This document shows positions 5,400 through 45,602 of a DNA stretch of 64,000 nt, one piece after another. Below the pieces are notes generated by a model, which was not told the DNA's origin, ran no database searches, and was given only the letters and a program-made list of their open reading frames with translations. Source of the stretch: a virus; the IMG/VR virus record IMGVR_UViG_3300044712_000815, positions 95,265 through 159,264 of that record. One strand, given 5' to 3'. Positions within the stretch are counted from its first letter, which is position 1. Every line of letters starts with the position of its first letter. The translations under genes and the position numbers were made by a program.

Positions 5400-7133
5400 A
5401 CAGTGAGTGCTGCCATTGTTATTTTACATTTTGTTTTATTTAATGATGATAAGGGTTGTATGATCGTAGCAAATAAAGGTAAAACTGTAAAAGAAATTAT
5501 TAGAAAAATTAAAGATATTTATAAATTATTACCATTTTTCTTAAAAAAAGGTGTTGTAAACTGGAATGAAACTCAAATTGCATTTGAAAATAATTCTCGT
5601 ATCCAAACAGAAAACAGAACAAAAGACCCATCAATTGGTTTTACAATTGACCTACTATATCTTGATGAATTTGCACATATTCCAGATAATTTTATAAGGG
5701 AATATTATGGTGCGATAGTACCTGTTGTATCTTCTATATCCAATTCTAGGATAATAATAACATCAACCCCGTGTGGATATAATATGTTTTGGGAACTGAT
5801 AACTGCGGCAGAATTGCCTGATGATGATCCAAATAAAAGTCCATATAAAGCGATGCGAGTTCTTTGGACACAAGTACCTGGACGAGAAGATACAAATATA
5901 AAAATTATAGATGCTAAATTAAAGAAATTTAGTATATCTAAATCTCAAGTATTAAAGGATATAAGGGAAAAATATGATATAACATTATATAAAAAACACG
6001 TTGGGGATGACATTATAGATTGTGTTAAGTATGATGTAAAAGATGAAAAAACATATATTGATAATATACGAAAAATTAGAATAAATGGAATTCCTCTTCC
6101 TGAATTGGCAATAATTAACAATTGGCAAGAAGAAGAAACAAAATTGTTGGGTTCACCTGAAATTTTTGATCAGGAATATGGATTACATTTTGTGACAGGT
6201 GATAAAATTTTATTTGGTAAAGAAATAATAGATTTATTAAAAAGTCAACAAACACAATTTGATTATATGGAACTACCCGCATTTGGAAAATTGCCATTTC
6301 CATATGATTCTATGAAATGGATAAGAAATTTGAATCTTTTTAATCCACTTAAAGTAAAAGATTATTATATATTGATATCTATTGATTTGGCTGAAGGATT
6401 AGCAAAAGATTATTCGGTTATAAATATATTTAGATTGATGTTAAGAGATAAAGAAGAAATTGAAAAGTACAAATATGAAAATTTGTATGATTTATTTAAA
6501 CTTGAACAAATTGGATTATATCGTAATAATGTATATTCAATTAAGGAAATTGCACATATACTATATTGTATAGCATTTGAATTATTTGATCCAGAAAAAA
6601 TTAAAGTTAATTTAGAATATAATATGTTTGGTGGTGAATTTTTAACCCAATTACCACAAGTATTTAATGGTGAAAATAATTATTCAAATTCAATATTTTT
6701 AAGATATAAACATAATCGAGAAGATGTTGGTGCAAGAATAGGCTTGAAATTAAACAAAGATAAACATTTGATTATAGATAAAGAATTTCAACAAGCTATT
6801 AAGCAAAGAAAAATGATACTACATCATGAACTAAATATAAAAGAAATTACAACATTCAGCAAACACGAAACAGCAGCAGGTAATGTAACTTATAGGGCAG
6901 AAAGTGGTAATGATGATGTCGTTATGACTACAATAACATTATCTTGTTGTTTTGATAATATTGGTTATAAAAATCTTATTGATATGTATGTTAATTGTAA
7001 TTTACAAGGTGATGTGTTAAGATATATAGAAACAATCACAAATAAATCTAATAATGCTGAAAATATGATTGGTGCATATAATAGAATATATCGAAGAAGA
7101 CCAGAAATGTATAATTCTAGATATCCTAGATAA
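4956..7133 (+). CDS. Large terminase, split-intein C half fused to C-terminal extein
   Basis: 725 residues. Residues 1-148 are the intein C half: the block-B-like GADTHTIFTKDHI (about 81-93), the block F region MFDLSINTPEMSYY (127-140), and TNDILSHN ending in the catalytic His-Asn at 147-148. Residue 149 is Thr, which serves as the +1 nucleophile and as the missing Thr of Walker A. The extein (149-725) has Walker B (LLYLDEFAHIP), a coupling motif (IITSTPCG) and the RNase H-like packaging nuclease (LISIDLAEGLAKDYSVINIF, then NLEYNMFGGEF, then GNDDVVMT). A later start at Met33 (5052) would remove a hydrophobic extension and give a more standard IntC. The gene overlaps the convergent gene by 8 bases. 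Confidence 0.85.
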   Translation: MLKNYLKNIIYFLIQLIEKYEFRHFDPNEDDIMKKFVNTIFLENEILVETDYGFVPVTELNITQPFQRYKLELENGIWFEGADTHTIFTKDHIQKALIDLTTDDFVITKYGLSKVKLIKKMYGKVSMFDLSINTPEMSYYTNDILSHNTVSAAIVILHFVLFNDDKGCMIVANKGKTVKEIIRKIKDIYKLLPFFLKKGVVNWNETQIAFENNSRIQTENRTKDPSIGFTIDLLYLDEFAHIPDNFIREYYGAIVPVVSSISNSRIIITSTPCGYNMFWELITAAELPDDDPNKSPYKAMRVLWTQVPGREDTNIKIIDAKLKKFSISKSQVLKDIREKYDITLYKKHVGDDIIDCVKYDVKDEKTYIDNIRKIRINGIPLPELAIINNWQEEETKLLGSPEIFDQEYGLHFVTGDKILFGKEIIDLLKSQQTQFDYMELPAFGKLPFPYDSMKWIRNLNLFNPLKVKDYYILISIDLAEGLAKDYSVINIFRLMLRDKEEIEKYKYENLYDLFKLEQIGLYRNNVYSIKEIAHILYCIAFELFDPEKIKVNLEYNMFGGEFLTQLPQVFNGENNYSNSIFLRYKHNREDVGARIGLKLNKDKHLIIDKEFQQAIKQRKMILHHELNIKEITTFSKHETAAGNVTYRAESGNDDVVMTTITLSCCFDNIGYKNLIDMYVNCNLQGDVLRYIETITNKSNNAENMIGAYNRIYRRRPEMYNSRYPR

Positions 7134-7527
7134 TTATTTTTTTAAATTTCAAATTATATTTGTCGATATTTTTATTATAATTATTAATTTCTTTTTTTCT
7201 AGTTTCATCATCAAGTAACCAATAATTGTTACGTGATGATGGACCATGGAGATAGAAATTGTTTGATAGTTTTTTACATACCATTGCACAAACCTTTGAA
7301 TCAATTTTCGTTTTAATTGATAGTTCATATGATTTTTTTAATTTTATTTGTATTTGTTTTTCAATATTATTTGGAATATCCCAATTATTATATGGTGAAA
7401 CTATTACAAATCTTGAATAAGAATTATCTTTTTCTTTGTGAATTATTCGAGAATTGTTCAATAATTCTAATATTGATGTTTTTATATTATCAAGGTCTAT
7501 CGTTAAATTTTCTATATAAGTATTCAT
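7126..7527 (-). CDS. Hypothetical protein
   Basis: 133 residues, not recognised. Lys/Asn-rich, mostly helical, with SRFVIVSPYNNWDIPNNIEK in the middle and a basic C-terminus. It follows the RHH gene at 7533-7688 by 5 bases, so the two form a minus-strand pair, and it converges on the terminase gene with an 8-base overlap. Confidence 0.5.
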   Translation of the reverse strand: MNTYIENLTIDLDNIKTSILELLNNSRIIHKEKDNSYSRFVIVSPYNNWDIPNNIEKQIQIKLKKSYELSIKTKIDSKVCAMVCKKLSNNFYLHGPSSRNNYWLLDDETRKKEINNYNKNIDKYNLKFKKIII

Positions 7528-7532
7528 AATAT

Positions 7533-7688
7533 TTATTTTAATTTTTCTTTTATAATCTTTTCAATGTGTTCAGAATAATTTTCTATTCCATTATCCGAAC
7601 AGTATTTGACCCACAATTCATAAACATCCGGATCAATTGAAAATGACACCTTCTTTCTCTTCTTTTCATCTGAAATTTTTCTTCGCAT
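7533..7688 (-). CDS. Ribbon-helix-helix DNA-binding protein
   Basis: 51 residues read directly from the minus strand. The strand KKVSFSIDPDVYELWVKYC followed by two helices (NYSEHIEKIIKEKLK) is the classic RHH (Arc/MetJ/CopG) layout with a basic N-terminus (MRRKISDEKKRKK). Such proteins act as dimers on operator DNA. It diverges from a second RHH gene across a 148-base spacer that contains an inverted repeat. Confidence 0.6.
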   Translation of the reverse strand: MRRKISDEKKRKKVSFSIDPDVYELWVKYCSDNGIENYSEHIEKIIKEKLK

Positions 7689-7747
7689 AGCTTTTTTTAT
7701 TGTTATATAAAAAATTTTTAAAAAAGTTTTTTTTTATTAATTTATTG

Positions 7748-7767
7748 AACACTAACATCTTAGTGTT
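7748..7767. promoter_or_regulatory. Inverted repeat between divergent RHH genes
   Basis: AACACTAA and TTAGTGTT form a perfect 8-base inverted repeat around CATC, in the spacer between two divergently transcribed RHH genes. It could be the operator of one or both repressors. A T-run follows on the plus strand, so a terminator is an alternative reading. Confidence 0.4.
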
Positions 7768-7836
7768 TTTTCACTATAAAAATGGTATTTTTTGACTTTT
7801 TTATATTTATATATAATAAAAAAACAAATAAAAGTT

Positions 7837-8013
7837 ATGAAAGATGTAAATAAAAAAATCGTAGTGTCAATTTCATTAGAACCAGAACTATTGAAACTTG
7901 TGAATGATACAGTTTCAAATAGATCGAAATTCCTGGAAAATTGTATCATATCAGAATTATGCAAATCCGAAGATATCAAATCTGAACTAAAAAAGAAATT
8001 TATTATTTTATGA
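7837..8013 (+). CDS. Ribbon-helix-helix regulator coupled to a homing endonuclease
   Basis: 58 residues: KKIVVSISLEPELLKLVNDT then NRSKFLENCIISEL, a beta strand plus two helices with the typical strand pattern and Pro turn. The start at 7837 is preferred over the in-frame upstream ATG at 7792, because the RHH strand then begins near residue 7. Its stop overlaps the start of the GIY-YIG gene (ATGA at 8010-8013), so the repressor and nuclease are translationally coupled. A TATATATAA box lies about 20 bases upstream. Confidence 0.65.
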   Translation: MKDVNKKIVVSISLEPELLKLVNDTVSNRSKFLENCIISELCKSEDIKSELKKKFIIL

Positions 8014-9158
8014 AATGGACTTTAGAAAAACTTCAAGAAGAAGCTGATAAATATTTGACTCGTGGTGAATTTCAAAAAAACTGTTCAGGTGCATATACAT
8101 TTGCAAGAATACACAATTTATTGGATATATTATTTGACAAACACAAATATAATGGATATTACAATAATAATAAACCTAAAGGGTATTGGACATTAGAAAG
8201 ACTTCAAGAAGTAGCAAATAAATGTAAAACTAGAATGGAATTAAAACAAAATTTTTGTGGTGCATATTCTAATGCTGTAAAATCAAAATTGTTGGATTTT
8301 TTGTTTAAAAATCATAAAAATAATGGATATCTTAATGATGATGGTTGGATTAAAAATAATTATGTTATATATGTATATGAATTAGAAAAATTCAATATCG
8401 CATATGTTGGATTAACAAATAATATAAATCGAAGAGATAAAGAACATTTATTTAATCCAAATGAAAAACTTAGTCAATTTTGTAAAGATCAAAATGTATC
8501 CTATCCTGAATATAAAATACTAGAAATTGGATTAAATTCATATACAGTAAGAAATAGAGAATTGTTTTGGTTAAATTATTATAAAAATGATGGTTGGATA
8601 ATGTATAATATCGCAAAAACTGGGTCATTGGGAAATGTTGAAAAATATTCAAAATCAAAATTACAAAAAGAAGTAAATAAATATAAAACTAGATTGGAAT
8701 TTAGTATAAATAATATAAATATGTATAATTGTGCAAAAAATAGAAAATTACTTGATAATTTATTTAAAACCCATTATAATAGTGGATTTACTGAAGACAA
8801 ATGGACTTTTGAAATATTACAAATAGAAGCAAATAAATATGATACAAGAAATGAATTTTTTAATAATAATTATAATGCCTATCATGCTGCTAGAGATAAA
8901 AAACTAATTTCAGAATTATTTAAAAATCACAAAAATAATGGATATATAAAACAAAAAAATGTAAATATTCCTTATACATTTTGGTCAAAACATAAATTGC
9001 AAGAAGAATGTGACAAATACTTAACAAGATTAGAATTTAAAAAAAATAATAAAGCTGCATATAGTGCAGCATTAAGATATAAAATATTAGATGAATTATT
9101 CAAAAATCATAAAAATAATGGTTATATAAATAAAATAAACCCAAAAACCATCAAATGA
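8010..9158 (+). CDS. GIY-YIG homing endonuclease with repeated DNA-binding modules
   Basis: 382 residues. The nuclease core lies at about 118-210: YVIYVYELEKFNIAYVGLTN (a GIY-YIG variant), then NINRRDKEH and the Glu-bearing NRELFWLNYYK. It is flanked by five ~48-residue repeats of the form W(T/S)xxKLQEExxKYxTRxEF...AYxxAxxxKLLDxLFKNHKNNGY, two before the core and three after it. They look like small helical DNA-binding modules, a common way for GIY-YIG nucleases to gain target length. A strong terminator overlaps the 3' end. A similar isolated repeat occurs at 33228-33389. Confidence 0.75.
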   Translation: MKWTLEKLQEEADKYLTRGEFQKNCSGAYTFARIHNLLDILFDKHKYNGYYNNNKPKGYWTLERLQEVANKCKTRMELKQNFCGAYSNAVKSKLLDFLFKNHKNNGYLNDDGWIKNNYVIYVYELEKFNIAYVGLTNNINRRDKEHLFNPNEKLSQFCKDQNVSYPEYKILEIGLNSYTVRNRELFWLNYYKNDGWIMYNIAKTGSLGNVEKYSKSKLQKEVNKYKTRLEFSINNINMYNCAKNRKLLDNLFKTHYNSGFTEDKWTFEILQIEANKYDTRNEFFNNNYNAYHAARDKKLISELFKNHKNNGYIKQKNVNIPYTFWSKHKLQEECDKYLTRLEFKKNNKAAYSAALRYKILDELFKNHKNNGYINKINPKTIK

Positions 9159-20085: not shown

Positions 20086-20849
20086 CACCATATATAATAT
20101 CAGCTTCTCGTCGTGAAGATATTCCAGCTTGGAAAGTTGAATGGTTTTTAGACCGAATTAAAGAAGGTAAAGTTGAAATGTGTAGTTCCTTCGCTGAATA
20201 TGAAATATCCTTTGAAAAGACCAAATTGATAGTATTTTGGACTAAAAACCCAAGACCACTAATGGAACATTTGAAAGAAATACCTTTCAAGTATTATTTT
20301 CATTATACATTAAATGATTATCCGGAATATGAATTGAATGTACCACCATTAAATGATAGAATTCAAACTTTTATAGATTTATCAAATATGATAGGTAAGA
20401 AAAAAGTAATTTGGAGATTCGATCCTATTATAATTAATGATCAAATATCAGTTGATGAAATAATAAAAAGAATTAAAAATATTGGTGACCAAATTTATCC
20501 ATATACTGAAAAATTAGTATTTAGTTTTGTTGATCCATATGTGAAACTTAAAAATCAATTTAATAGTATAAATAACGAAACACAATTAAAAATTGTAAAT
20601 GAACTAAAAAAACTTAATTTATCCTGGAATTTAGAATTGGCAACATGCGCTGAAAACAATGAATTTGAAGGAATTGAACACAATAAATGTATTGATCCCG
20701 AATTAATTAAACGGATATGTGGAAATAAACGATGGATTAGTGACACAAAAGATAAAGCACAACGAAAGTTATGTGGTTGTATAACATCAGGTGATATTGG
20801 ATCATTTAGAGAATGTTCACATTCATGTACATATTGTTACGCAAAATAA
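20082..20849 (+). CDS. DUF1848 family protein
   Basis: 255 residues, family length. Diagnostic blocks in order: ISASRREDIPAWKVEWFLDR at the N-terminus, IVFWTKNPRPLMEHL, FHYTLNDYPE, KVIWRFDPIIINDQIS, and a C-terminal CGCITSGDIGSFRECSHSC then TYCYAK. The C-terminal Cys cluster probably holds an Fe-S centre, and the fold is thought to be radical-SAM/SPL-like; the reaction is unknown. It starts an operon with a small gene and a DNA methyltransferase, under the control of an RHH gene by position. Confidence 0.8.
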   Translation: MTPYIISASRREDIPAWKVEWFLDRIKEGKVEMCSSFAEYEISFEKTKLIVFWTKNPRPLMEHLKEIPFKYYFHYTLNDYPEYELNVPPLNDRIQTFIDLSNMIGKKKVIWRFDPIIINDQISVDEIIKRIKNIGDQIYPYTEKLVFSFVDPYVKLKNQFNSINNETQLKIVNELKKLNLSWNLELATCAENNEFEGIEHNKCIDPELIKRICGNKRWISDTKDKAQRKLCGCITSGDIGSFRECSHSCTYCYAK

Positions 20850-40578: not shown

Positions 40579-40642
40579 TCTTAATATATACAAAAAAATG
40601 AATTTTGTTTTTTTATATATATGTAAAAAATTAAATATTTTT

Positions 40643-41911
40643 ATGTTACCAAGGGAATCATCTGCGAAACAATTAAAAAAATTAAGAGAACTTACAAAAG
40701 GTACTGATATTGGTGATTTAACTAGTAAAACAGGTGAATTTGGTAATATACCTAATTTAACATATATTGGTAATCCTATTGATAGACACGTTGATACATA
40801 TGAAGAATTTGCAGAAAAGGATAGTAAATTACAAACTATTGCATTTAAATCTAAATTAGTTAATAAACCAATACATGAAAAAAATAAATATAAAAAAATG
40901 AGTGATAAAGTAAATAATTTGTTGAATTTTGAAGATTTTGAAAAAAATTGGAAAGCAGAAATAGCATCAAAAACAAAAAGAACTGATGTTGCTAAAGATA
41001 TTATCAAAGAAAAAGATAATAAAACTCTAAGCTTTGATGACTTCATCAAAGAAAATGTTGAAGAAATTGATGAATTATCAAGTGATGATAATTTAGAACC
41101 TGGAATTGAACCAATATTAGATGCAGATGTTGATGCAGATGTTGATGCAGATGTTGATGCAGATGTTGATGCAGATGTTGATGCAGATGTTGATGCAGTT
41201 AAAGTTAATGTTAATAGAAGCAATATTAAAACTTTCGATGAATTTGATGATCTTGAAGATAGAATAGATGATCTTGAAGATAGAATTAATAATCTTGAAG
41301 ATGATAATGACATTGAAGAAGTTCAAGATGATGATGATGACATTGAAGAAGTTCAAGATGATGATGACATTGAAGAAGTTCAAGATGATGATGATGACAT
41401 TGAAGAAGTTCAAGATGATGATGATGACATTGAAGAAGTTCAAGATGATGATGATGACATTGAAGAAGTTCAAGATGATGATGACGACATTGAAGAAGTT
41501 CAAGATGATGATGATGACATTGAAGAAGTTCAAGATAAATTTGAATCTATTAAATCATTTGAATCTTTCAATTTAAGAGAAGTATCACCAAAAAAAAAAG
41601 AAAAAGAACAACCTAAATACACGATGTTAGGTGAAGAAAAAGAACCAAAATCTAATCCTAATTTTGGTTATGCTTCTGTAAAAGATCAAGAAATTAAAAA
41701 AATCGCATGGTTTAACAATTACGTTATTGATCCACCAACACCTAAAGAAAGACCAATTTTAAATGCTGGTCAATTTATAGAAAATGATGTTGTTAAAGGA
41801 TATGTTAATAGAATCGAAGGAAAAAATGTTTATGTTGAATCTTTAGATGAACCAATGACAATAAAAAAATTCAGCATAAAAGATGCTGTTAAACTAAAAA
41901 ATGAAAAATAA
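40643..41911 (+). CDS. Acidic repeat protein, possible virion or core protein
   Basis: 422 residues from the ATG at 40643 (MLPRESSAKQLKKLRELTKG); an in-frame ATG at 40598 would add 15 residues. The middle holds about six VDAD units and then eight DIEEVQDDDD units. Upstream of them lies VNNLLNFEDF...SKTKRTDVAKDIIKEK, a motif shared with the 23106-23543 protein. The C-terminal ~100 residues look folded (KGYVNRIEGKNVYVESLDEP). The very negative middle could act as a spacer, a DNA mimic or a metal binder. A terminator follows. Confidence 0.6.
   Translation: MLPRESSAKQLKKLRELTKGTDIGDLTSKTGEFGNIPNLTYIGNPIDRHVDTYEEFAEKDSKLQTIAFKSKLVNKPIHEKNKYKKMSDKVNNLLNFEDFEKNWKAEIASKTKRTDVAKDIIKEKDNKTLSFDDFIKENVEEIDELSSDDNLEPGIEPILDADVDADVDADVDADVDADVDADVDAVKVNVNRSNIKTFDEFDDLEDRIDDLEDRINNLEDDNDIEEVQDDDDDIEEVQDDDDIEEVQDDDDDIEEVQDDDDDIEEVQDDDDDIEEVQDDDDDIEEVQDDDDDIEEVQDKFESIKSFESFNLREVSPKKKEKEQPKYTMLGEEKEPKSNPNFGYASVKDQEIKKIAWFNNYVIDPPTPKERPILNAGQFIENDVVKGYVNRIEGKNVYVESLDEPMTIKKFSIKDAVKLKNEK
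41120..41198 (+). repeat. 12-base tandem repeat coding VDAD
   Basis: About six and a half perfect tandem copies of GATGCAGATGTT inside the acidic repeat gene, encoding alternating Asp-Ala-Asp-Val. Confidence 0.85.
41309..41535 (+). repeat. 27/30-base tandem repeat coding DIEEVQDDDD
   Basis: Eight nearly identical units beginning GACATTGAAGAAGTTCAAG, differing by one Asp codon in length and one silent change. All stay in frame. Confidence 0.85.
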
Positions 41912-42445: not shown

Positions 42446-44071
42446 TTAAAATAGTTTAATAAATTTTAAATTTCCAGAATTATAAATTCTATATATTTTT
42501 CGTTCTAGCATAATTTCACGTTCAGTTTTATTTGAATCGAATCCTTGTTTAACTAATTTGTCTTTTCTATAATTAAATCTATGATGTCTAATGCCATCTA
42601 CTACATAATAATAATTTGGTTCTGTTTTGCCAAAAAAATTAAACCCCAATGTTTCATAAAGTTTACCTCGACTAATTGATCTATCAGCATATGTAGTAAT
42701 TTCTTTTGGCTTATAATTTTTTATGAAATATTTGAATAATTTACTAGCACCACCAACAACATTCACATTTAATTTATTACAAAAACGAAGTAATTCATAT
42801 TCACCTTCATTTGTAGACTTTTTACCCATAGCAACCCTACGATTACCGAATGTCATTAAGCTAACTAATTCATTATCGAAAAATAATCCAATTTTTATGT
42901 TCGAACCGACATATCCACTAATGTGATTTGTTTCTAAAAAATTTTTAATATCTATAATATTGATATCGGTTTTTATTTCACATTTTCTAGCAAATATTTT
43001 ATTTTGTGTTTTACCAAGTTTATTTAATATTATAGATTTAATAATATCTTGTTTATAAATCCAATCATCTTCATAAATATGTATCAATTGAATTCCTAGT
43101 TTTTCACAAATATTAGTCTTATTTAGATGATAATTTTTATCTTTGTTTATTTCATTGTGCCACCACATCCCATTAAATTCAAATGCTAAGTTTAATTCAG
43201 GAAGATATATATCTAATTCATTTGGATTTAATATTTTTCTATTATTTGATATGATATCACCATAATAATTTTCTTTAATATAATTTAATAATTGTGTTTC
43301 TAATCCACTTACATTTTTAGAAATTGGATTACATTCTGTGCATAATATTGTGTTTAAATTATTTCTGTGCCACAATAATTTATAATCTATTATAAATGTG
43401 TGATTTTTGTTACAATCACAATTAAATTCATATTTACCATTTATGTTATATGATTTAAAAATATGATTATATTTTTTTATTAATTCTGATTTATATAATC
43501 CATTATCAAATGTATTTTTATAACTTAAAAATTGATTTTCTTTCATTTTAAGTGATATATCATAATTTTGACTAACGTATTCTACACCATATCGTTCTAA
43601 ATTTGTTTTTTTTGTTTTTTCAGGATTTATATAATTTTCATCACCATATTTTTCTAATTTAGTTTTTTTTGATTTATTAAAAATATAATTTGATTGTTGT
43701 GGATATTCTACCCCAAAATTAACCAAACACGTTTTTATTTTTTTATCTTTAATGATTTGCATATTTGAAATATTATCAACACCATATTTATCTAAAATAG
43801 TATCTTTATTTTTTTGTTCTGCACATTTTCTACTACAAGCATAATAAATTGTTGAATTTTTTGTATTAATGTTGTAATTGTTTAATGATATATCCTTTTC
43901 TTTTTCGCAAATATCACATTTAGCTTTTATTTTAACACCACTATTATTAGGCAAATCAAAAACATCAATAGAAACAACTTCATTCCCACCTTTAACATCA
44001 TATCCTAATTCTTTATAATATTTAATTTGATTATTGGATATTTTAACATTAACACACTTAGATAAAATCAT
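42446..44071 (-). CDS. Homing-endonuclease-like protein (DUF7487-type repeats plus Vsr-like nuclease)
   Basis: 541 residues. The N-terminal ~30-170 has a zinc-knuckle-like part (KCDICEKEKD...CSRKC) and repeats of the form 'KYGVDN....K.K.T' (DKYGVDNISN, NFGVEYPQQS, EKYGDENYIN, ERYGVEYVSQ), as in DUF7487-type phage proteins. A Vsr-like nuclease part follows (~285-330): LDIYLPELNLAFEFNGMWWH and LGIQLIHIYEDDW. The C-terminal ~160 residues look like a GNAT-type fold (LVSLMTFGNRRVAMGKKSTN; ELLRFCNKLNVNVVGGASKL). Its position directly behind a broken polymerase gene fits a mobile element. Confidence 0.65.
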   Translation of the reverse strand: MILSKCVNVKISNNQIKYYKELGYDVKGGNEVVSIDVFDLPNNSGVKIKAKCDICEKEKDISLNNYNINTKNSTIYYACSRKCAEQKNKDTILDKYGVDNISNMQIIKDKKIKTCLVNFGVEYPQQSNYIFNKSKKTKLEKYGDENYINPEKTKKTNLERYGVEYVSQNYDISLKMKENQFLSYKNTFDNGLYKSELIKKYNHIFKSYNINGKYEFNCDCNKNHTFIIDYKLLWHRNNLNTILCTECNPISKNVSGLETQLLNYIKENYYGDIISNNRKILNPNELDIYLPELNLAFEFNGMWWHNEINKDKNYHLNKTNICEKLGIQLIHIYEDDWIYKQDIIKSIILNKLGKTQNKIFARKCEIKTDINIIDIKNFLETNHISGYVGSNIKIGLFFDNELVSLMTFGNRRVAMGKKSTNEGEYELLRFCNKLNVNVVGGASKLFKYFIKNYKPKEITTYADRSISRGKLYETLGFNFFGKTEPNYYYVVDGIRHHRFNYRKDKLVKQGFDSNKTEREIMLERKIYRIYNSGNLKFIKLF

Positions 44072-44095
44072 AACAGCTTTTTCATTTATATATTA

Positions 44096-44122
44096 AACAA
44101 AAAAAGTGGTTTTTTGCCACTT
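44096..44122 (-). terminator. Terminator at the end of the polymerase fragment
   Basis: On the minus strand, AAGTGG pairs with CCACTT around CAAAAAA, followed by TTTTT. The stem begins in the stop codon of the polymerase fragment. Confidence 0.75.
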
Positions 44123-45602
44123 ATAATGTTTCTTCCAATTTTTTCAGTTCTTCTTTTAATTTTTCAAGTTCTTCGTGTTTTTCCATCATAACTTTTTTCC
44201 ACTTTTTTCTGTCTGAATAAATTTCACCCATTACTTGTGTTACAACACCATCTTCTTTCTTAAATACTGATCCATTTATAGTTATAATGTCATCTGGATC
44301 AATTGGCAATTGATGACCATTAAAAATTGAATAATCTTTACCTTTTACTTGTTGTCCTTTATATGAATCCGCACTTATATTAAATTGCCTCATTGTTGTT
44401 GGATAAAGGCTTGCAAAGTCAAAACAACAAGTCCAAGTCGCCATCCCCCGAACTGGTTCTTTTACCCAACCACCTTTAATTGAACTACCACCATTGTCAC
44501 CATATTCATCTTGTTCTTCTCTGACAAGGACAATGTTTTTTTGATCTCTTAATTTTTCACGTAAAATACCTTCAGTTAATGCTAATGTTGACATCGCATC
44601 TTTAATTTTAATTTTTCCTAAAACTGCCATACCATACAAAATATCTATATATTTCATTTTATAATGTATTTGCTGCACAAGGCAACTGTCAACTGCATTA
44701 TAAAATACAAACTTTTTATAATCTTCTCTGTGTAATCTTTTTAAATCACCTTCATAATTAACCTTTTTTACTTCAGCACCAAGTAATTTTTCAGATGCAA
44801 AATCTAATGATATACTTTCTTTAACTTTAATAGATTGATCCCATTTATCAAATAATTCCATATAATCAACAATAACCCGATGTGCAGGAATTTCAGCATA
44901 ATTTAATTTACCATGAACATTTTTACCATTCCAAGGTTGATTCATTTTTCTAGTAAATGATGCAACTGATGGATCAATTCCCAACTTTCTTGCCCTCGCA
45001 ACTAAAAATACCCAGTCATATTCAACAAAAAACCAACCAGTTATAATTGGCATTTTAGGTACTATTTTATTAAAAAAATTATTCAACATATCAAATTCAT
45101 TTTTATATTGAATATATTTAAATTGATAATTTGTTTCAAACTTTTTAAAGTGATTGTTAATATCTTTTTCAATAGATTGAACTTGTTCTGAATCTAACGG
45201 TTCAGTACCTATAACCAAAACTTTATTTTTATTTACTATCGAAATTGATTGAATCGCACTTTCTGCTAAATGTGGTTCTGCTTTCTTATCTAAAATTTCA
45301 TTTTCGATATCCACAAAAAATATATCAGGTTCAGCATAACCATAAATTTCTTCTTTTTCATCTTCGGGTAAATTATCTATAAAATCAAAAATTGAATATT
45401 TGTTTGGATACTTAGAATATATTTCTTTAACCGAACTTCCATCCCATGTTACATATTGCCCCGATTTTTCAGGATCATCATCACCAGTTTTAATAAATTT
45501 CGTTGGTCTTGACCAATTTTTATATTTCAATTTAATTTGACCATTTTTATCTATGTAACTAATGATCAGATTATTGCTTCTGAATTCTGTATCTACTAAC
45601 AA
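44121..45602 (-). CDS. DNA polymerase family B, T4 gp43-like, N-terminal fragment
   Basis: 493 residues; full gp43 is about 900. Present: the N-terminal domain (LKYKNWSRPTKFIKTGDDD) and the 3'-5' exonuclease with Exo I IFFVDIENEI, an Exo II region ITGWFFVEYDWVFLVARARK and Exo III FYNAVDSCLVQQI. Polymerase motif A is also present as CFDFASLYPTTMRQFNIS (near residue 395). The protein ends after a charged coiled coil (KKVMMEKHEELEKLKEELKK), before motif B (KxxxNSxYG) and motif C (DTD), so it cannot polymerise alone. The stop is followed at once by a terminator, and the next gene is a homing endonuclease. The C-terminal part must lie outside this window, as with the split gene 43 of some T4 relatives. 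Confidence 0.85.
   Translation of the reverse strand: MLVDTEFRSNNLIISYIDKNGQIKLKYKNWSRPTKFIKTGDDDPEKSGQYVTWDGSSVKEIYSKYPNKYSIFDFIDNLPEDEKEEIYGYAEPDIFFVDIENEILDKKAEPHLAESAIQSISIVNKNKVLVIGTEPLDSEQVQSIEKDINNHFKKFETNYQFKYIQYKNEFDMLNNFFNKIVPKMPIITGWFFVEYDWVFLVARARKLGIDPSVASFTRKMNQPWNGKNVHGKLNYAEIPAHRVIVDYMELFDKWDQSIKVKESISLDFASEKLLGAEVKKVNYEGDLKRLHREDYKKFVFYNAVDSCLVQQIHYKMKYIDILYGMAVLGKIKIKDAMSTLALTEGILREKLRDQKNIVLVREEQDEYGDNGGSSIKGGWVKEPVRGMATWTCCFDFASLYPTTMRQFNISADSYKGQQVKGKDYSIFNGHQLPIDPDDIITINGSVFKKEDGVVTQVMGEIYSDRKKWKKVMMEKHEELEKLKEELKKLEETL

What the first reader, a model, noticed from the sequence alone, without database searches (positions are those of the whole stretch)
42446..45602. DNA polymerase split after motif A, with its own terminator and a homing nuclease at the break
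The gene has exonuclease motifs and motif A but stops before motifs B and C. A terminator hairpin starts within its stop codon, so the short product is not an artefact of one indel. The following gene is a homing-endonuclease-like protein and the next genes run the other way, so the C-terminal half is not adjacent. The end of the fragment is a charged coiled coil that could join the partner. No intein residues are seen at the break, unlike the terminase.
Basis: partly seen in the sequence, partly recalled or inferred. Interest (0 to 1): 0.7.

Follow-up and report, generated by a model that had tools for sequence, protein, structure and literature searches.

The report
Two-piece DNA polymerase of giant phages
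This giant bacterial virus, like all its sequenced relatives, makes its DNA-copying enzyme as separate proteins whose genes can lie 80,000 bases or more apart, so the gene here is a working half and not a broken gene, and the DNA-cutting gene beside it looks like a later guest.

Summary
Confirmed and extended. Window 44121-45602 (-) encodes the N-terminal half of a T4-type family B polymerase: exonuclease motifs, motif A and the first finger helix, ending at the fingertip (about T4 residue 505-530). A terminator overlaps its stop codon, and a free-standing homing endonuclease gene follows (42446-44071, -). The C-terminal half is not in this 159-kb record. Every close relative is split at the same place. 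Eight records (219-735 kb) carry both halves and no detectable whole PolB, PolA or PolIII-alpha. In kin of about 77-81% identity the C-half lies 85-98 kb away on the opposite strand. N-halves are under strong purifying selection (dN/dS about 0.1), and the two halves co-diverge (r = 0.98). The product is therefore most likely one chain of a heterodimeric replicative polymerase. In some relatives the C-half is cut again, at motif C, by a split intein, giving three genes. The endonuclease belongs to a dispersed multicopy family, is absent beside many split genes, and sits in either orientation where present: a later guest, not shown to be the cause. The same fingertip split is known from Aeromonas T4-like phages. 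What looks new is its depth, its unlinked halves and the nested trans-splicing.

The parts
44121..45602 (-). N-terminal half of split T4-type family B DNA polymerase (493 aa, TTG start): 3'-5' exonuclease domain, palm motif A (DFASLYP) and finger helix 1
   Evidence: dN/dS about 0.08-0.15 against relatives
44104..44122 (-). intrinsic-terminator-like hairpin overlapping the stop codon (AAGTGG-CAAAAAA-CCACTT then T run)
   Evidence: analogous hairpins of different sequence in L038, L042, LR756504
42446..44071 (-). free-standing homing endonuclease gene (541 aa; phrog_3339 / phrog_559, DUF7487), member of a dispersed family
   Evidence: 4 matching stretches in this record, up to 16 in relatives

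Best explanation
The gene encodes one subunit of a heterodimeric (in some relatives three-gene) replicative PolB. The N-subunit carries the exonuclease, the N-terminal domain, half of the palm (motif A aspartate) and finger helix 1. The C-subunit carries finger helix 2 with motif B, motif C and the thumb. The break lies in the variable loop at the tip of the antiparallel finger hairpin, so the two chains can re-pair along finger helices 1 and 2 and across the palm without splicing. In this lineage the C-gene is unlinked (85-98 kb away, convergent, in close kin) and simply lies outside the 159-kb record. The homing endonuclease gene invaded next to an already split gene. Shown by sequence: the split, its conservation, selection on it, and the partner genes in relatives. 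Inferred: assembly, activity, and the partner's existence in this particular genome.
For: All 8 relatives with long records (LR756501, LR745206, LR756502, LR756504, LR756500, Lak-B5, MA9V-2, pT24) have separate N- and C-genes. No whole PolB, PolA or PolIII-alpha was detected in them or in this record (the PolA and PolIII models each rang in 10 of 14 control genomes). G020, G021 and G013, with N-halves about 77-81% identical to this one, carry the C-gene 85-98 kb away on the opposite strand. N-half dN/dS is about 0.07-0.16 among six close homologues, and the last 110 codons are about equally constrained. N and C distance matrices correlate, Mantel r 0.977, 0 of 5000 permutations as high. The break maps to the fingertip, T4 about 505-530, as in 44RR gp43A/43B. 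Precedent: the split 43A/43B of phage 25 co-purify and have polymerase activity (PMC2988022).
Against: No C-half lies in the 159-kb record, although 139 kb on the side where close kin have it is present; gene order shared with G021 ends at about 104 kb. AlphaFold models of both halves were too poor to use (mean pLDDT 37 and 52). No biochemical data exist for these proteins. A divergent split PolIII-alpha reported for group 2.2 jumbo phages (PMC7824862) could be a second polymerase that Pfam models miss.
Confidence: 0.88

Rival explanations
1. Decayed or truncated copy: the gene lost its 3' half through endonuclease insertion, and a complete polymerase elsewhere does the work.
For: An endonuclease gene lies directly downstream, and the C-half is not in the record.
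Against: dN/dS about 0.1 along the whole length including the 3' end. The same endpoint is kept in all close homologues from different samples. No whole polymerase in any long relative.
Confidence: 0.03
2. The halves are joined covalently: an N-side split intein, RNA trans-splicing or recoding makes one polypeptide.
For: Split inteins appear to join C-half fragments in relatives, so trans-splicing elements exist in this phage group.
Against: No intein match in N-halves. N-halves end in finger helix 1 with a stop and often a terminator. C-halves begin with ATG and finger helix 2. The genes are often on opposite strands 80-280 kb apart, which excludes read-through.
Confidence: 0.03
3. The homing endonuclease caused the split: it cut or inserted into an intact polB at the fingertip, and the C-half later moved away.
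For: Members of the same endonuclease family lie directly downstream of the N-half here, in L038, in the L041 group and in LR756500, and 22-113 bp upstream of the C-half in L079, L083, L085 and L086. An endonuclease insertion split nrdA in phage Aeh1 (PMC2988022).
Against: Split N-halves of LR756501, LR745206, LR756502, LR756504, Lak, MA9V-2, pT24 and L046 have no such neighbour. L040 and G021 carry a different family member there, in the opposite orientation. The family is multicopy. For phage 25, PMC2988022 also judged it unclear whether the seg gene caused the split or invaded it.
Confidence: 0.15

Closest known systems
Split gene 43 (43A/43B) of Aeromonas T4-like phages 44RR2.8t and 25
   Same: Break at the same fingertip position; N-fragment of 498 aa (493 here); a hairpin-forming intergenic stretch in 44RR; an endonuclease gene (seg) associated with the split in phage 25.
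   Different: In 44RR the halves are neighbours in one cluster. In the lineage studied here they are unlinked, up to hundreds of kb apart and often on opposite strands. 44RR groups with T4 in the tree (support 100/99), so its split is a separate event. The associated endonuclease is of a different kind (seg, GIY-YIG, in phage 25).
Pseudomonas jumbo phage MIJ3 split PolB with intein (PMC6892783) and 'fractured genes' with split inteins
   Same: PolB in two genes with a split intein and an endonuclease gene between; the same kind of second fracture is seen at motif C of the C-half in G013, L075-L080, Lak and LR756500.
   Different: The N/C break in the window has no intein, so its chains must associate non-covalently.
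PHROG families phrog_2062 (N-half, 502 positions) and phrog_1918 (C-half, 382 positions)
   Same: The window N-half matches phrog_2062 nearly end to end, and relatives' C-halves match phrog_1918, so both halves already exist as separate public families named DNA polymerase.
   Different: The family entries as returned here do not say that they are two subunits of one enzyme or where the break lies.

Membership tests
T4-type (gp43-like) family B DNA polymerase, N-terminal part | Exo I-III and motif A | tested here: met
   Invariant D98/E100, D196, Y301/D305, D395-FxSLYP; RB69 gp43 73-504 matched at E 2e-56
T4-type (gp43-like) family B DNA polymerase, N-terminal part | Motifs B and C in the same chain | tested here: not met
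   The frame ends before motif B; PF00136 matched 22-147 of 453 only. Present as a separate gene in relatives
Split gp43A/gp43B polymerase | Break at the fingertip | tested here: met
   The end aligns with 44RR 43A at the tip loop, T4 about 505-530
Split gp43A/gp43B polymerase | A C-half gene with motifs B and C in the same genome | tested here: inconclusive
   Absent from the 159-kb record; present in all 8 long relatives and in kin G013, G020 and G021
Split gp43A/gp43B polymerase | The halves associate and polymerise DNA | not testable with these tools
   Reported for phage 25 (PMC2988022); no assay here, and structure models too poor
Split gp43A/gp43B polymerase | Halves adjacent in one cluster | tested here: not met
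   85-98 kb apart in G013, G020 and G021; about 101-281 kb in LR745206, LR756502 and LR756504
Fractured gene joined by a split intein | IntN/IntC at the break | tested here: not met
   No intein match in the N-half; C-halves start at finger helix 2. Met only at a different break, inside the C-half of relatives
Pseudogene | Relaxed selection | tested here: not met
   dN/dS 0.07-0.16
Free-standing homing endonuclease (phrog_3339) | Family match and dispersed copies | tested here: met
   phrog_3339 E 5.5e-120; 4 matching stretches in this record
Free-standing homing endonuclease (phrog_3339) | Cuts the empty site and promotes its own inheritance | not testable with these tools
   Needs an activity assay

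The most novel reading that the evidence does not exclude
In a deep clade of huge phages the sole replicative polymerase is an obligate assembly of two or three separately encoded chains from unlinked genes. It is assembled first by split-intein trans-splicing at the catalytic motif C, in members that have it, and then by non-covalent pairing of the finger helices. This could tie replication start to the joint expression of distant operons.
Probability: 0.3. Interest if true: 0.7.

Novelty: new variant of a known kind. Interest (0 to 1): 0.5.

Why it matters
A polymerase cut through its active site, with motif A on one protein and motif C on another, that has persisted across a broad set of large phages shows how far an essential enzyme can be fragmented. 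Annotation pipelines that call the short gene truncated, or that build trees from one PolB gene, will misread these genomes. The natural pairs (for example G021 N and C) are ready-made split polymerases for assembly studies, and the intein-bearing and intein-free versions of the C-half allow a direct test of what a second fracture costs.

Tried and rejected
Search of the own record with PF00136, with the LR756501 C-half and with 13 further C-half pieces by tblastn: only the N-half found, best C-half score at chance level. PolA and PolIII-alpha models: nothing in this record or in 8 relatives. AlphaFold of the N-half and a C-half: pLDDT 37 and 52, not used, and no fold search run. Gene-order comparison with G021: shared order covers G000 104-150 kb around the N-half, then breaks; an apparent anchor near 7 kb proved to be an endonuclease-plus-small-ORF cassette, not the C-half neighbourhood. 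AU test of one clade of non-Aeromonas splits: rejected (p 2e-5), but the set included V6Aob, and the only whole polymerase nested inside (Flavobacterium phage MaF61) is a long branch, so single origin versus re-fusion stays open. Vibrio phage V6Aob appears broken too, but its C-piece as annotated starts after motif B, so I do not count it as the same break.

Full report
What is there. Window 44121-45602 (-) encodes 493 aa with the exonuclease motifs and motif A of a family B polymerase, stopping before motifs B and C. It matches RB69 gp43 residues 73-504 (E 2e-56). A terminator-like hairpin begins in its stop codon. Fifty bp on, a homing-endonuclease-family gene runs in the same direction (42446-44071), and beyond it genes run the other way.

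Where the break lies. Aligned with the whole polymerases of T4, Vibrio phage F86 and cyanophages, the N-half ends with finger helix 1 (RKKWKKVMMEKHEELEKLKEELKKLEETL). Relatives' C-halves begin with finger helix 2 followed by motif B (K..NGTYG). The gap is the fingertip loop, which varies even among whole polymerases, about T4 505-530. Aeromonas phage 44RR gp43A ends at the same place.

The partner. Nothing resembling a C-half lies in the 159,264-bp record that holds the window; the same search method finds C-halves in the relatives. All eight relatives with long records have the split and both halves: LR756501 (735 kb), LR745206, LR756502, LR756504, LR756500, Prevotella phage Lak-B5, Chryseobacterium phage MA9V-2 and Tenacibaculum phage pT24. 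No whole PolB, PolA or PolIII-alpha was detected in them. Iyer et al. report a divergent split PolIII-alpha in related jumbo phages (PMC7824862), so 'only polymerase' is limited to what these models detect. Sphingomonas phage PAU is split as well. In G020, G021 and G013, whose N-halves are about 77-81% identical to the window's, the C-gene is about 85, 86 and 98 kb away on the opposite strand. In LR745206, LR756502 and LR756504 the halves are about 101, 132 and 281 kb apart. The window's record is a fragment, so a missing C-half is expected, though it does hold 139 kb on the side where close kin carry it; shared gene order ends at about 104 kb.

Is it functional? N-half dN/dS is 0.07-0.16 among six close homologues, with the 3' end about equally constrained, and C-halves behave alike. 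N and C distance matrices over 11 phages correlate at r = 0.977, with none of 5000 permutations as high, as expected for two parts of one enzyme inherited together even when unlinked. Terminators recur after N-halves with different stem sequences. Activity itself is inferred, resting on the phage 25 precedent in which split 43A and 43B co-purify and polymerise DNA (PMC2988022).

A second fracture. In G013, L075, L077-L080, Lak and LR756500 the C-half is itself in two genes, interrupted at motif C (YGDTD|S) by a split intein (PF14890 matches in both G013 parts, the C-side one below the curated cut-off), usually with an unrelated endonuclease-like gene (phrog_22677 in G013) between. G020 and G021, 88-94% identical in these parts, have the C-half in one piece with the site empty. 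So some of these phages encode PolB in three genes. That the intein starts with Ser and sits at the site known from archaeal PolB inteins is my reading from general knowledge, not a test. Whether this window's phage has the one-gene or two-gene C-half is unknown.

The endonuclease. Its family is multicopy: 4 matching stretches in this record and up to 16 in relatives. It follows the N-half here, in L038 and in the L041 group (73% and 64% identical) and, distantly (37%), in LR756500. It is absent in L046, LR756501, LR745206, LR756502, LR756504, Lak, MA9V-2 and pT24. L040 and G021 carry different members there in the opposite orientation. Members also sit 22-113 bp upstream of some C-halves. This pattern fits repeated invasion around an already split gene, though an endonuclease origin of the ancient split cannot be excluded.

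Origins. On an N-half tree, 44RR groups with T4 (100/99), separate from the huge-phage splits, so the fingertip was broken at least twice. The tree needs at least three changes between split and whole. One whole polymerase (Flavobacterium phage MaF61, long branch) falls inside the split clade with modest support, so re-fusion or several splits remain possible.

Novelty. Both halves already exist as separate PHROG families, and split PolB is known in Aeromonas phages and MIJ3. In the open literature I could search (10 searches) I found no description of this clade-wide, unlinked fingertip split or of the nested intein fracture in Lak and its relatives; subscription papers were not searched. I rate it a new variant of a known kind.

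Noticed in passing
L066:5192-9147 (G013), L075, L077-L080; L018; L023 and L030: The C-half of PolB is fractured at motif C by a split intein, in two genes; closely related G020 and G021 have the uninterrupted version, giving occupied and empty alleles for comparison.
   Followed up: partly
G000 6887-8815; L038 downstream of the N-half; G021 20457-20798: An ORF of about 110 aa (MKLKEEEYELLYKKLEYTFKKSGNEL...) recurs next to or near members of the endonuclease family, as if the two travel as one cassette.
   Followed up: no
L079, L083, L085, L086: Endonuclease genes of the same family lie 22-113 bp upstream of the C-half gene, mirroring the one after the N-half.
   Followed up: partly
L128:5288-8272 (Flavobacterium phage MaF61): A whole 994-aa polymerase that groups inside the split clade on a long branch: a possible re-fusion.
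   Followed up: partly
L124 (Vibrio phage V6Aob): PolB appears to be in pieces here too, with a different second break; the annotated C-piece starts after motif B.
   Followed up: no
window 40598-41911: The neighbouring + strand gene carries long acidic tandem repeats (DVDADVDA..., DDDDIEEVQ...).
   Followed up: no
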